From contig WPIO01000040.1 in NCBI GenBank assembly GCA_009760855.2, forward strand, positions 168,501 to 232,500: 64,000 nucleotides of DNA. The letters run 5' to 3'. The first letter of the stretch is position 1, and every line of letters starts with the position of its first letter. The position numbers were made by a program, and so were the translations under genes. The DNA comes from Cristatella mucedo. Taxonomy: Eukaryota > Bryozoa > Phylactolaemata > Cristatellidae. Of the stretch, positions 1,486 through 63,722 are shown piece after piece. The notes beneath the pieces were generated by a model, which did not search any database, was not told the origin of the DNA, and saw only the letters and a program-made list of their open reading frames with translations.

Positions 1486-33850
<32,365 letters not shown>

Positions 33851-33973
33851 TCTCCTTGGCGTTCCAACCGAGTGATCGGTTATGTAATCCAAGTAACCTG
33901 CAAAGAACCAACCGCTGCAAAGCCCATCTTCCGATCATGCGCTGAACTTGCAGCCTCTATATATAATTATATA

Positions 33974-34112
33974 TAATTCATTTGTATAGCACCCCAAGAG
34001 AACTTAATCTCTATTCAGGCGCTTCACATATGCCTCGGGGCTCGAGCCCACGACCTCGGCATGACCTCGGTCGGGGGTGTGCACCTTAACCGCTGGACCA
34101 AACCAGCTCGGC
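33974..34112 (-). mobile_element. tRNA-derived SINE, type 2
   Basis: On the minus strand it reads GCCGAGCTGGTTTGGTCCAG, CGGTTAAGG (A box) and GGGCTCGAGCCCCGA (B box), then the LINE-like tail GCCTGAATAGAGATTAAGTT. Just upstream of BLTP1 exon 1. Confidence 0.88.
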
Positions 34113-36050: not shown

Positions 36051-37789
<1,739 letters not shown>

Positions 37790-37937: not shown

Positions 37938-38388
37938 TTGGTAAACTGCCCGACAGTTAAGGACGTGACCCCGACTGGCTTCTTCTTCTTTCACATCGCT
38001 AGGTCAAACGAATCTGGAGCTGGAGCAGCTGTTAGAAAACGCTCCAACTACGATTTCAAACCATTTGCAGTATCCCCGAAGCAGTCTTTAGAATCTATTG
38101 TCTTGATTTCGCTCGAAAACAGGCTACAAATAGTGGCAGTAGTCTATCGCCCACCAGTTACCAAGTCCTCGTTTATCTCAGATTTCTCTGATTTCATTTC
38201 GATTCTGTGCGCAAGAAATCAAGCTTTGCTCACTATGCTTGATTTCAAAATTCATTTTGATAACTTATCTGACATTTTCAGTACTGAATTTGAATTTGGT
38301 GCACTGGCTGACTTCTTGTCTCTTTTGGCTCATGTGCACGACCCTAGTCACATCAAGGGCCACGAACTCGACCAAATTTTCACATAAT
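37938..38388 (+). mobile_element. LINE endonuclease domain fragment
   Basis: The 149-residue ORF encodes the C-terminal half of an APE-type endonuclease: RLQIVAVVYRPPVTKSSFIS, DFKIHFDNLSD (from GDFNIHFD) and HVHDPSHIKGHELDQIFT. The start is not native and the 5' part is missing. Confidence 0.85.
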
Positions 38389-38431
38389 ACTAATAATAAT
38401 ACGCTTGATGTAGTGCTCTCGGAGAACTCAA

Positions 38432-38502
<71 letters not shown>

Positions 38503-38535
38503 TTGTCTCTAGGTGCTTTACATTTGAAATTTTGT
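38389..38535 (-). mobile_element. Family A 3' hairpin with CT tract grown inside it
   Basis: An ATT-type tail and AGTGCTCTCGGAGAACTCAA, then about 70 bases of CT in place of the short TCTCTTTCT, then AGGTGCTTTACATTTG. Both hairpin flanks are intact around the microsatellite. Confidence 0.88.
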
Positions 38536-39289: not shown

Positions 39290-39599
39290 AGGGCCACCAA
39301 TAATCATTAAGTATTGCCGTTATAAATTTTCAAGTATACTTGATCACCTGGTTTGCCAGCCTGTACGTAACTACCTGTGTTGGTGCTTATTTATGTACTT
39401 TGTTTGTAGCTGCCGGCTTGGTCATCCGGTCTTACGTTTCAAGCGACGGAACGATTGAACCGAATGTTAAGGCGTAGTTACAAACAGAAATAGTCATTTA
39501 TTTCAGCGGCTTTGCAGCCCTTTAGTCACAGCCGGAGATGCATCTGCTTCGCTAAGCTTTTCCCCATAGTTGCCTTCGTTCAGCTCGGGAGATAAGGTT

Positions 39600-40696
39600 T
39601 CCGCCTTTAAAGACCGAGGTCAAGATTGATCCCTCCCAGCCTTTGAGCACCTCAAATTCTCTCAACTCACTTGCAGCATGTATTGATGACATCCGCACAC
39701 GGATGGCAGCAAATTTTCTAAAACTAAACGGTGATAATACTAACTTACTAGTTATGGGCAAACCCAGTGTGATTCACAAATTGGAAAGGCTGACGCTCAA
39801 AATTGGCTCTGCCAGCATATCTCTTGTTGAATCAGCTAGAAATCTAGGTGTCATATTCCAAAGCGACTTCTCTTTAGACGACCTTATCAGCTCCGCAGTC
39901 AAATCTGCTGACTTTCAGGTTCATAACATTGATAAAATTCGGGGTTATTTAGATAAGGATACCACGTCCAAGTTGGTCCATGCATTCGTGACATCCCGTC
40001 TCGACTTCTGCAACTCACTGCTTACTGGCCTACCAGCATGTGCGATCAGGCGATTGCAGCTGGTGCAAAACTCCGTAGCTATGCTTGTCTGTCGTGAGCG
40101 TCGCAGTTGTCCCATTACACCACTTCTCGCCGACCTGCACTGGCTACCAGTCAAGCAACGGATTGACTTCGATGTTTTGTCGCTCACTTTTAGGTCACTT
40201 CATTCTTGGGCTCCAGGCATTCTCCCCGATATACTACCTCATCAGGCCAAGCATCGTACCACCCGCTTTTCGGAATCCAACAGTCTACCAATACCTCGTA
40301 CAAACCTTTAATTCTTTGGAGACCGTGCATTTAGTTCGTATGCTCCCAAAGCCTGGAACTCCTTCCCGCCTTGCGTCAGAACATCCCCTGACTCGACCAC
40401 ATTTAAAAAGAACTTGAAAACACACCTATTTAGGACAGCATTTAGTGGGTCCCTGTGATTCGTCCTTCATGTGCTTATGCGTGCTGGCACTGTGCATGCT
40501 GCCACTAACCACATTTGCATGCTGACCTTGTGCATGTAACCCTAATCATGTTATTCATTTTGTTTGTTTATCAAGCATGATATTACTCACCATTCAATTG
40601 CATTTCCCTTTGCAGAAAATGGAAAGCGCCTAGAGAGAGAGATTGAGTTCTCTGAGGGTGCTTTATCAAATGCATTATTATTATTATTATCATTAT
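39600..40696 (+). mobile_element. Family A LINE, best-preserved 3' half
   Basis: An uninterrupted 222-codon ORF (39643-40311) covers the RT palm end and thumb: RMAANFLKLNGDNTNLLVMG, ESARNLGVIFQSDFSLDD, KLVHAFVTSRLDFCNSLLTG, PLLADLHWLPVKQRIDFDVL. After one stop the C-terminus (MLPKPGTPSRLASEHPLT) reads in another frame. The 3' UTR, hairpin and (ATT)n follow. Confidence 0.93.
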
Positions 40697-56946: not shown

Positions 56947-58046
56947 CGAAGACATATGCTATTACATTTGATTCTCTTAGGGCAATTTAAAAAAAGCTTA
57001 TATTGTTATTATTACGACTTGCTATATGGTGTTGAAGGGAACAAGATGCCAAGTTAAGATTTAAATAAATAAAATAAGGCTACCTGCACGGTGCGGCCTT
57101 TCAGGGAATCCGGCTATTTCAGCTTTTGTCGCTTGAGCTTCAAGAATGAGATTTCCGCCTAGATTCGCTCTGTTTTCAAAATATTTGTAAGTCATCTAAT
57201 CTTGAAATAGAGCTGGGCATAGTCAAGGGCGATGGTAGGAATAGGCAAAAGTGCCAAGGTCATGACTGACGGGGTTGAGCCGGGGCTCAGCTACGAACGC
57301 TCAGAACGCAGCTCCTTCGCTCAGAACGCCGCCTTTAGCCTCCCATTGCCTAGAAGCCCGATTGAACCCCTCCCCCCGATTGAATTCCCCCGCCCCCGGA
57401 TGGCTACCAGACTTCCTGGAAGGATCGCCGCACAGGCTTGCCGAGCTGGCTTTCCTGTAGGCTCGTCGAAAGTTTCGAGCTCGAAGATTCAGATATATAC
57501 CAATATATACTCAGATGTACTTGCATTCAAATGTACTAACACGCCCTCACACGAGTAGCGCCTTTGAATCATGTCACTTCACTTATAGTGATGACTCGGA
57601 AGCTACAGCTGCACTCTGCAATTCACCAGGAAGTGCCCAACGTCAAGACCTGTGCGGAATTTAGGCGAGCACGTTCCGGCACCTTTCAACATTCTTCTAA
57701 ACAGTGCAGACACTCCATCAGTGGGAATGCAGAGAACGACACACGATACAAGCGACCGAAGTTGTCAATCGTACGACGTTAATAAGCCAGAGGGCGTAAG
57801 CATCGAGCGCCAGCTATGCTGAAGGAAACTTTGGGGGAGCCAGCAACCAGATGGTTGGATTACTCTTTTGTCCCTATACCCAGGTTTAGTGATCGATCTG
57901 CCTATTTGAATCGCTAATGACTTCTGCCAGCGTTTTCTGTGGTTTCGTCCTCGTCAGGCATAGTTCACCATCTTTTCGGGTCACAACGTGTAAGCTCTAA
58001 CCTTTCAGACCAATGATGTTGATAATCGATGGAGGCAACGGAAAGC

Positions 58047-59424: not shown

Positions 59425-60125
59425 TGCAGCTAGGCTTGTCTATCGTGAGCGTCGCAGCTGCCACATCACACCACTCCTCGCCGACCTGCACTGGCTCCCA
59501 GTCCAGCAGTGCATTGAATTCAACGTTCTGTCACTTACTTTTAGGTCCCTTCATTTTCTGGCTCCAGACTAACTGCTTGCTGGCCTACCGGCCTTACGGC
59601 TGGTGCACAAACTCTGCAGCTAGTCGGGTCTGTCGCAAACGTCAGAGTTGTCACACCATACTACTTCTCGCCGACCTGCACTGGCTTCTAGTCAAGCATC
59701 AAATCGAATTCAAGGTTCTGCCACTTACTTTTCGTTCCTTTCATTCTCTGGCTGTAGTCTGCCTACCAGAACTACTCCCTCACCGGGCGAAGAATCGTAC
59801 AACCTGCTTTTCTGACTCGAATTATTTAGCCATACCTCATATGAACTTCAAAACCATTGGAGACCGTGCCTTTAGTTCTTATGCTCCCAAAGTCTGAAAC
59901 TCACTACTGACGCACACCACAACGTCCCCTGACGTGACGACATTTGCAAAGAAGCTTAAAACGCACCTTTTTTTTATTACACCTCTTGGTGGGTCTTTGT
60001 GATTCGTCCTTCGTGTGCATGTACCTACTTACCTGCTCGGGACTGCTGCTTGGTGCGTCTGCTGCTTGCGGGTGTTACCGCCGAATATTTGTTAATGCTT
60101 TATATGCAGCATCTGTAAAGTGCCC

Positions 60126-60218
<93 letters not shown>

Positions 60219-60249
60219 GGAGAGAGAGAGAGGGAGGGAGAGAGAGAGG

Positions 60250-60281
<32 letters not shown>

Positions 60282-60325
60282 GGGATTCAGTTCTCTGAGG
60301 GCACTATACAAATGTATTATTATAA
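59425..60325 (+). mobile_element. Family A LINE with internal duplication and GA-expanded hairpin
   Basis: The RT segment encoding PLLADLHWLPV... appears twice (about 59430-59570 and 59620-59760). The C-terminus SYAPKV and a 3' UTR follow. The terminal hairpin (GTAAAGTGCCCTAGAGAG...CAGTTCTCTGAGGGCACTAT) contains about 155 bases of GA. Confidence 0.88.
60124..60283. repeat. (GA)n tract within the LINE hairpin
   Basis: GA with GGGA interruptions toward the right, located between the two conserved arms of the family A hairpin. Confidence 0.95.
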
Positions 60326-60334
60326 TTACTATAG

Positions 60335-63384: not shown

Positions 63385-63722
63385 ATGGCGCGAAAGTCAA
63401 AGGTCTTGCTCAGCTGCGCCGTCTGTGCGGCGCTCATCGTGAGTGCGACGCGCGCCGGCGAGCGACTCGCGCCGCGTAACCCGCAGTCGACGGTCGGCCA
63501 GCCGCTGAGGCCACCTCTGCTCGCCCGCTTCGCAGCGCCCGCTTCGCAGCGCCCGCTTCGCAGCGCCCGCTTCGCAGCGCCCGCTTCGCAGCGCCCGCTT
63601 CGCAGCGCCCGCTTCGCAGCGCCCGCTTCGCAGCGCCCGCTTCGCAGCGCCCGCTTCGCAGCGCCCGCTTCGCAGCGCCCGCTTCGCAGCCGCCGGCGCC
63701 TGGCGCAGCGCATCTCCGCCGA

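What the first reader, a model, noticed from the sequence alone, without database searches (positions are those of the whole stretch)
60100..60325. Second, independent GA expansion in the same LINE hairpin position
A plus-strand copy shows about 155 bases of GA in place of the short AGAGAGA of the hairpin, again with intact flanks. Two independent events at the same seed suggest that family A LINEs disperse microsatellite seeds and may explain why about eleven long GA/CT tracts occur in 64 kb.
Basis: partly seen in the sequence, partly recalled or inferred. Interest (0 to 1): 0.7.

Follow-up and report, generated by a model that had tools for sequence, protein, structure and literature searches.

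The report
LINE hairpin that seeds GA microsatellites
A common jumping element in this eukaryotic genome carries a short AGAGAGAGA run inside a hairpin near its end, and that run repeatedly grows into a long GA repeat, far more often where the run is unbroken than where one base breaks it.

Summary
A 156-bp GA array (60127-60282) sits inside the 3' hairpin of a LINE copy with both arms readable. Copy B (38384-38530, minus) has a separate expansion; the two share only the right arm. Exact counts in the 572-Mb genome: 10,845 copies with an unbroken seed (arm + AGAGAGAGA), 319 of them at 23 bp or more (2.9%); 30,605 with a one-base break (AGAAAGAGA), 3 of them at 21 bp or more (0.01%). Of the 39 nearest relatives by left flank, 13 carry arrays of 20 bp or more, unclustered on a poorly resolved tree. 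A marker of the youngest-looking subfamily occurs in 0 of 20 expanded and 8 of 15 unselected copies, and duplicated copies differ by one unit, so growth probably follows insertion. The seed idea is supported. That it explains the window's GA tracts is not: 2 of 12 window tracts and 1 of 14 in a 200-kb sample are hairpin-borne. Element-borne proto-microsatellites are known; new here are the place (a LINE 3' stem-loop) and a replicated one-base comparison.

The parts
59786..60126 (+). 3' part of LINE copy A: end of the ORF2-like region and 3' UTR up to the hairpin's left arm
   Evidence: 59786-60018 is 70-76% identical to five other long matches in the window; its 60000-60110 stretch has 39 scored relatives besides itself in the genome at 83-87%
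60117..60126 (+). Left (5') arm of the 3' hairpin, AAAGTGCCCT
   Evidence: sequence; arm AAAGYRCCT in many other copies
60127..60282 (+). GA array, 156 bp, pure for its first 84 bp, in place of the 9-bp AG seed
   Evidence: TRF, run scan, relatives
60290..60304 (+). Right (3') arm of the hairpin, GTTCTCTGAGGGCAC
   Evidence: sequence; the stem still closes around the long GA loop in the predicted RNA fold
60305..60330 (+). End of the element: TATACAAATG and ATT-rich tail
   Evidence: sequence; similar tail in other copies
38384..38530 (-). Copy B: short 5'-truncated hairpin copy with an independent GA array at 38432-38510
   Evidence: the truncation is read by eye
15327..15398 (+). Unexpanded copy with the 9-bp unbroken seed AGAGAGAGA
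1791..1860 (-). Unexpanded copy with the broken seed AGAAAGAGA
33960..34060 (-). Tail and part of the head of a tRNA-headed SINE-like copy with the same kind of hairpin (seed CTGAATAGAGATT)
   Evidence: tRNA-like head read by eye, not tested with a tRNA finder

Best explanation
The window holds one of several hundred places where a LINE-dispersed AG seed became a microsatellite. The LINE family (with SINE-like elements sharing its tail) ends in a 3' stem-loop, the kind of structure that stringent LINEs use to bring their own RNA to the reverse transcriptase. In some subfamilies the 5' side of this stem-loop reads AGAGAGAGA (4.5 units, unbroken); in the commoner form one A breaks it (AGAAAGAGA). 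Each insertion plants that seed at a new place. Unbroken seeds are probably near the length at which DNA replication begins to slip, so over time some grow to 20-150 bp; broken seeds very rarely do. SHOWN: the position, the recurrence, the independence of the two window events, the seed dependence. SUPPORTED BUT NOT PROVED: that growth follows insertion. INFERRED: that the mechanism is replication slippage, and that expanded copies are poor templates for further retrotransposition.
For: Whole-genome exact counts: unbroken seed 10,845, 319 of them at 23 bp or more; broken seed 30,605, 3 at 21 bp or more; ratio about 300 (its Fisher test treats copies as independent). The 40 best-scoring copies by left flank alone, copy A included (query 60000-60110, no tract in it): 14 of 40 have an AG span of at least 20 bp; the label needs 12 changes on the tree, shuffled mean 11.8. 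In the same copies the CT run of the right arm (usually 5 bp) never exceeds 6 bp in the 37 of 40 where the arm was found. Of 20 fetched expanded hits 19 show a right arm with up to 3 substitutions, 14 of them exactly 4 bases after the array. Timing: youngest-type marker in 0 of 20 expanded against 8 of 15 unselected copies on contig C2. On contigs C1, C2 and C4, complete in the lists, I counted by hand TG-arm copies expanded in 4 of 10, CG-arm in 3 of 71, CA-arm in 0 of 8 (test of the first two). Duplicated copies differ by one unit: L077/L078 89 and 87 bp, L047/L048 15 and 13 bp. A length threshold for microsatellite birth and the stabilising effect of interruptions are described in PMC4102424 (passages seen).
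Against: Within the 40-copy subfamily expanded and unexpanded copies are equally diverged (median 7.3% and 7.1%, P=0.85): no age gradient inside that set. The tree is poorly resolved: 1 of 36 inner branches starred, and starred branches force only 2 changes. The age order of subfamilies rests on a marker and on near-identity read by eye, not on dates; two of the 20 expanded copies (L077, L078) are duplicates of one. Broken and unbroken classes were not age-matched and the two length cut-offs differ by 2 bp. Three broken-seed copies did expand (read). No length polymorphism or pedigree data are at hand. In the 264-kb sample the share of AG-run clusters with a run of 20 bp or more is 3 of 53 in tails and 22 of 896 elsewhere (one tail case assigned by hand, no test run), so nothing shows that the hairpin itself adds instability.
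Confidence: 0.83

Rival explanations
1. The arrays arise at insertion: the reverse transcriptase stalls in the hairpin and slips on AGAGAGAGA while copying the RNA (target-primed reverse transcription), so copies are born expanded.
For: Slippage of the RT during reverse transcription is offered as one option for RTE elements in Lepidoptera (PMC2887409, Discussion read). The seed lies in a stable hairpin (RNA fold z -5.6 and -5.0). Expanded and unexpanded copies of one subfamily are equally diverged, which this rival also allows.
Against: The youngest-looking subfamily carries the unbroken seed, yet 0 of 20 expanded copies belong to it against 8 of 15 unselected ones; 14 of 15 unselected C2 copies have exactly 9 bp, the other 15 bp; duplicated copies differ by one unit, which shows later change though not the origin.
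Confidence: 0.12
2. One or a few expanded source elements spread the long array by retrotransposition.
For: Expanded copies occur in several subfamilies.
Against: Expansion is unclustered on the flank tree (12 changes for 14 expanded rows, shuffled mean 11.8), lengths vary widely, and in two zebrafish LINEs of the L2 clade the loop of the 3' stem-loop is needed for retrotransposition and binding (PMC4176376, passages seen). The tree is poorly resolved.
Confidence: 0.03
3. The two window copies are one event copied by segmental duplication.
For: Segmental duplicates of expanded copies do exist elsewhere (L077/L078, 97.7% over 438 bp).
Against: Copies A and B share no flank beyond the right arm; A has LINE sequence upstream, B reads as truncated just above the hairpin.
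Confidence: 0.01
4. The hairpin, not the run length, drives the instability (a structure-prone hotspot).
For: The seed lies in a predicted stem-loop.
Against: The broken seed sits in the same hairpin and expands about 300 times less often; the right arm's CT run is stable in 37 copies.
Confidence: 0.1
5. Array lengths are assembly artefacts.
For: Dinucleotide arrays are error-prone in assemblies; no reads are available here.
Against: Contigs reach 24.8 Mb, which suggests long reads; the seed dependence is not expected from artefacts.
Confidence: 0.03

Closest known systems
AG microsatellites in the poly-Y region of carnivore tRNA-Lys SINEs (PMC1634856; abstract and one Results section seen)
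   Same: A retroelement with an internal seed region in which AG microsatellites arise repeatedly (65.0% of poly-Y regions generated microsatellites in the clones that held both regions).
   Different: There it is the poly-Y region of a SINE, and the clones came from a database of microsatellite clones; here the seed lies in the 5' arm of a LINE 3' stem-loop and copies were counted in a whole genome, with a one-base broken-seed comparison.
RTE non-LTR elements as source of microsatellite families in Lepidoptera (PMC2887409; abstract and Discussion seen)
   Same: LINE 3' ends carry simple repeats to new places and account for a fraction (about 10%) of the microsatellites in GenBank for these insects.
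   Different: There the repeat is in the very short 3' UTR, at the end of the element; here it is inside a stem-loop, and a separate ATT tail is the terminal repeat.
L2-clade stringent LINEs with a 3' stem-loop recognised by ORF2 (ZfL2-1, ZfL2-2, UnaL2; PMC4176376, passages seen)
   Same: A 3' stem-loop followed by a short tandem repeat at the end of the element.
   Different: No Rfam match to a LINE 3' element in this window; clade not placed by an RT tree here.

Membership tests
Stringent-type LINE of the L2/CR1 kind | Reverse transcriptase domain | tested here: met
   RVT_1 (PF00078) in an open frame of L020, 9e-30. I saw no LINE hairpin directly after that frame (one search shows a SINE-like tail there), so the link to the tail family rests on the shared ORF2 C-terminal sequence seen by eye with the window frame 39556-40311 that lies upstream of the hairpin at 40641. 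Four window frames gave no Pfam hit.
Stringent-type LINE of the L2/CR1 kind | Conserved 3' stem-loop | tested here: met
   Two typed consensus hairpins fold far better than shuffles (z -5.6 and -5.0); 14 consensus pairs in 20 copies, but only 2 pairs with a two-sided change and a covariation term of +0.3, so covariation does not support it
Stringent-type LINE of the L2/CR1 kind | Short tandem repeat at the 3' end and SINEs sharing the tail | tested here: met
   ATT repeats after the hairpin; copies with a tRNA-like head (by eye) and the same kind of tail
UnaL2 LINE 3' element as an Rfam family (that Rfam holds it is recalled) | Match to the Rfam model | tested here: not met
   No such match among the 11 at E up to 1 in the window
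L2 clade | Placement on an RT tree | not tested
   No reference RTs were at hand; the name L2/CR1-like is recalled from the look of ORF2 and tail
Transposable-element-derived microsatellite | Repeat seed present in the element | tested here: met
   arm + AGAGAGAGA in 10,845 places
Transposable-element-derived microsatellite | Repeated independent expansion at the same element position | tested here: met
   14 of 40 nearest copies, unclustered; 319 exact cases genome-wide
Transposable-element-derived microsatellite | Length polymorphism between individuals | not testable with these tools
   One assembly only; duplicated copies differ by one unit

The most novel reading that the evidence does not exclude
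The single A that breaks the seed (AGAAAGAGA) is a guard: because the loop of the stem-loop is needed for recognition by the reverse transcriptase, lineages with an unbroken seed lose their source elements to GA growth, and broken-seed lineages persist. Selection on the LINE would then act against microsatellite birth in its own recognition hairpin. For: broken-seed copies outnumber unbroken ones by 2.8 to 1. Against: the youngest-looking subfamily sampled on C2 has the unbroken seed.
Probability: 0.1. Interest if true: 0.75.

Novelty: new member of a known kind. Interest (0 to 1): 0.5.

Why it matters
How microsatellites are born from short seeds is usually studied with unrelated seeds in unrelated surroundings (my general knowledge). 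Here about 41,000 exact copies of one hairpin arm give two seeds that differ by one base in nearly the same context, within one genome, and their outcome differs about 300-fold. That would make the birth threshold and its time course measurable: dated subfamilies, tract lengths and sister species would give a rate per seed per unit of divergence. It also warns that some GA markers in this organism will have repeated flanks.

Tried and rejected
Considered and rejected: segmental duplication of one event for the two window copies; insertion of the LINE into a pre-existing GA tract (the array lies between two arms of the element); LINE origin for most window tracts (at the other ten tracts no printed flank hit, up to 3 printed per flank, was a hairpin tail; the tract at 37683 lies in a different repeat, 82% and 71% to L024).

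Led nowhere: Pfam on four window frames gave no hit. A consensus fold run in scripts returned no structure; the fold_alignment tool gave one. The genome-wide count of CT growth in the right arm did not complete, so the right-arm control rests on 37 of 40 copies. A first BLAST of joined flanks did not list even the shared right arm of A and B; it was repeated with separate flanks. The organism was not identified; 'eukaryote' is inferred from the LINEs, the eukaryotic rRNA fragment and the genome size. The papers tool rejected one query for a sign; one Pfam call had wrong coordinates and was repeated with correct ones.

Selection to keep in mind: the 40 copies are the 40 scored of 562 candidates; the 200-kb sample is 20 evenly spaced stretches of one contig, C653; the 20 expanded loci are the first 20 of the list; the 15 unselected loci are all hits on contig C2 in the list. 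On C1, C2 and C4 together 7 of 89 unbroken copies are expanded (hand count), more than the 2.9% of the genome. The exact pattern catches 5 of the 14 expanded copies of the 40-copy set, so 319 is a floor. The broken-seed pattern needs the break to stay left of the run, so growth left of the break is not counted in it; in 14 of the 20 fetched expanded copies the array ran straight into GATTNAG without the break (read by eye).

Full report
What is there. Window 60127-60282 is a 156-bp GA array. On its left is LINE 3' sequence ending in AAAGTGCCCT; on its right is GATTCAGTTCTCTGAGGGCAC, TATACAAATG and an ATT-rich tail. The 59786-60018 part is 70-76% identical to five other long matches in the window, and the stretch 60000-60110 has 39 scored relatives besides itself (562 candidates in the first look) in the 572-Mb genome at 83-87%. 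Copy B, on the minus strand, has an array at 38432-38510 between AAAGCACCT and GTTCTCCGAGAGCAC. Flanks of A and B share only the right arm, 80% over 50 bases, besides one 14-base match at E 0.3. A third case, C, turned up in a 200-kb sample of contig C653 taken without regard to repeats (L012 minus 8514-8566).

The unexpanded form. Copies in the window and the sample read CAGCAAATGTAAAGCGCCTAGAAAGAGATTGAGTTCTCTGAGGGCGCTTTATCAAGTGCATT(ATT)n or variants of it; some carry AGAGAGAGA in place of AGAAAGAGA (69 profile hits at E up to 1 in 264 kb, the profile having been built from 37 tails of the same sequence). The RNA folds into a hairpin much better than shuffles (z -5.6 and -5.0). A fold of 20 aligned copies gives 14 pairs, but covariation does not add support (two pairs with two-sided changes, term +0.3). 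The stem can still close around the long loop of copy A (z -2.7). SINE-like copies with a tRNA-like head, read by eye, end in the same kind of tail. An open frame of what looks like the same LINE in the sample has a reverse transcriptase domain.

Is the recurrence more than chance? In the whole genome 319 places match the exact arm AAAGYRCCT followed by at least 23 bp of AG; the reversed control gave 0. There are 8,019 T-bounded AG runs of that length, of which about 0.5 would be preceded by the arm by chance with equal base frequencies. Of the first 20 of the 319 places, 19 show a right arm with up to 3 substitutions and 14 have it exactly 4 bases after the array.

Seed dependence. The unbroken seed occurs 10,845 times and the broken one 30,605 times. 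Expanded: 319 (2.9%, at 23 bp or more) and 3 (0.01%, at 21 bp or more); the comparison treats copies as independent, and the classes are not age-matched. In the subfamily of copy A the common seed is unbroken, and 13 of 39 relatives chosen by left flank alone, or 14 of 40 with A, have spans of at least 20 bp. In these copies the right arm's CT run stays at 6 bp or less in the 37 of 40 where it was found.

Independence and timing. On a tree of the left flanks the 14 expanded rows need 12 changes, no fewer than shuffled labels (mean 11.8); the tree is star-like and poorly resolved, and its starred branches alone force only 2 changes. Expanded and unexpanded copies of that subfamily are equally diverged (7.3% and 7.1%), so within it age does not predict growth. 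Between subfamilies it seems to: a marker of what looks by near-identity like the youngest subfamily occurs in 0 of 20 expanded (19 if the duplicates L077/L078 count once) and 8 of 15 unselected copies, and on three contigs listed in full TG-arm copies are expanded in 4 of 10, CG-arm copies in 3 of 71 and CA-arm copies in 0 of 8 (hand counts; test). Duplicated pairs differ by one unit: L077/L078 (89 and 87 bp) and L047/L048 (15 and 13 bp). I read this as growth after insertion; growth during insertion is not excluded.

How much does it explain? By my criterion the window has 12 GA/CT tracts of at least 20 bp; 2 are in hairpins, and at the other ten no printed flank hit was a hairpin tail. In the 200-kb sample it is 1 of 14. 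Genome-wide the exact pattern gives 4% of T-bounded tracts, a floor because the exact pattern found 5 of 14 expanded copies in the 40-copy set. So the LINE is one source among others, and the abundance in the window is not explained by it. In the 264-kb sample, 3 of 53 AG-run clusters in tails and 22 of 896 elsewhere hold a run of 20 bp or more (no test run), which gives no sign that the hairpin itself is a hotspot.

Against known work. Carnivore tRNA-Lys SINEs have AG microsatellites arising repeatedly in an internal poly-Y region (PMC1634856, abstract and one section), and RTE elements carry 3' UTR repeats that make microsatellite families in Lepidoptera (PMC2887409, abstract and Discussion). 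Transposable elements also feed tandem repeats in humans (PMC3389668, abstract). A length threshold for microsatellite birth and stabilising interruptions are described in PMC4102424 (passages); that 9 bp of AG lies near that threshold is my inference. In two zebrafish L2-clade LINEs the loop of the 3' stem-loop is needed for binding and movement (PMC4176376, passages), from which I infer that expanded copies are poor templates. In the listings of my searches (the best 9 to 25 papers shown each) I saw no title or abstract start describing growth of a repeat inside a LINE 3' recognition hairpin; most subscription papers are not covered.

Verdict. It is a new member of a known kind (transposable-element-derived microsatellites), with an unusually clean natural experiment. 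Slippage and loss of mobility are inferred.

Noticed in passing
window 57840-57982 (minus): Fragment of eukaryotic large-subunit rRNA (Rfam RF02543, 95 bits), the only such match in the window.
   Followed up: no
L017 minus 6956-7119: Three head-to-tail copies of a ~60-bp hairpin-plus-tail unit: a small tandem array made of LINE tails.
   Followed up: no
L091, about 150-330; also L082, L085, L087, L088, L096, L098: Copies that look truncated just above the hairpin, that is insertions consisting of little more than hairpin and tail; in L091 one seems nested inside another copy's hairpin (by eye).
   Followed up: partly
window 34009 (-), 56853 (-), 40766 (+), 41834 (+): Short elements with a tRNA-like head and the LINE-like hairpin tail (SINE-like), some with AT-rich tails.
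   Followed up: partly
window 37683-37784: A 102-bp CT tract in a different dispersed repeat (L024 near 6161-6291, 82% and 71% on the two flanks): another possible seed family.
   Followed up: no
window 63522-63690: A 14-bp GC-rich unit repeated 12 times at 100% matches.
   Followed up: no
genome-wide: AG runs of 23 bp preceded by T (8,019) are commoner than runs followed by T (5,756, the reversed control): a directional excess that the 319 exact hairpin cases explain only in part.
   Followed up: no
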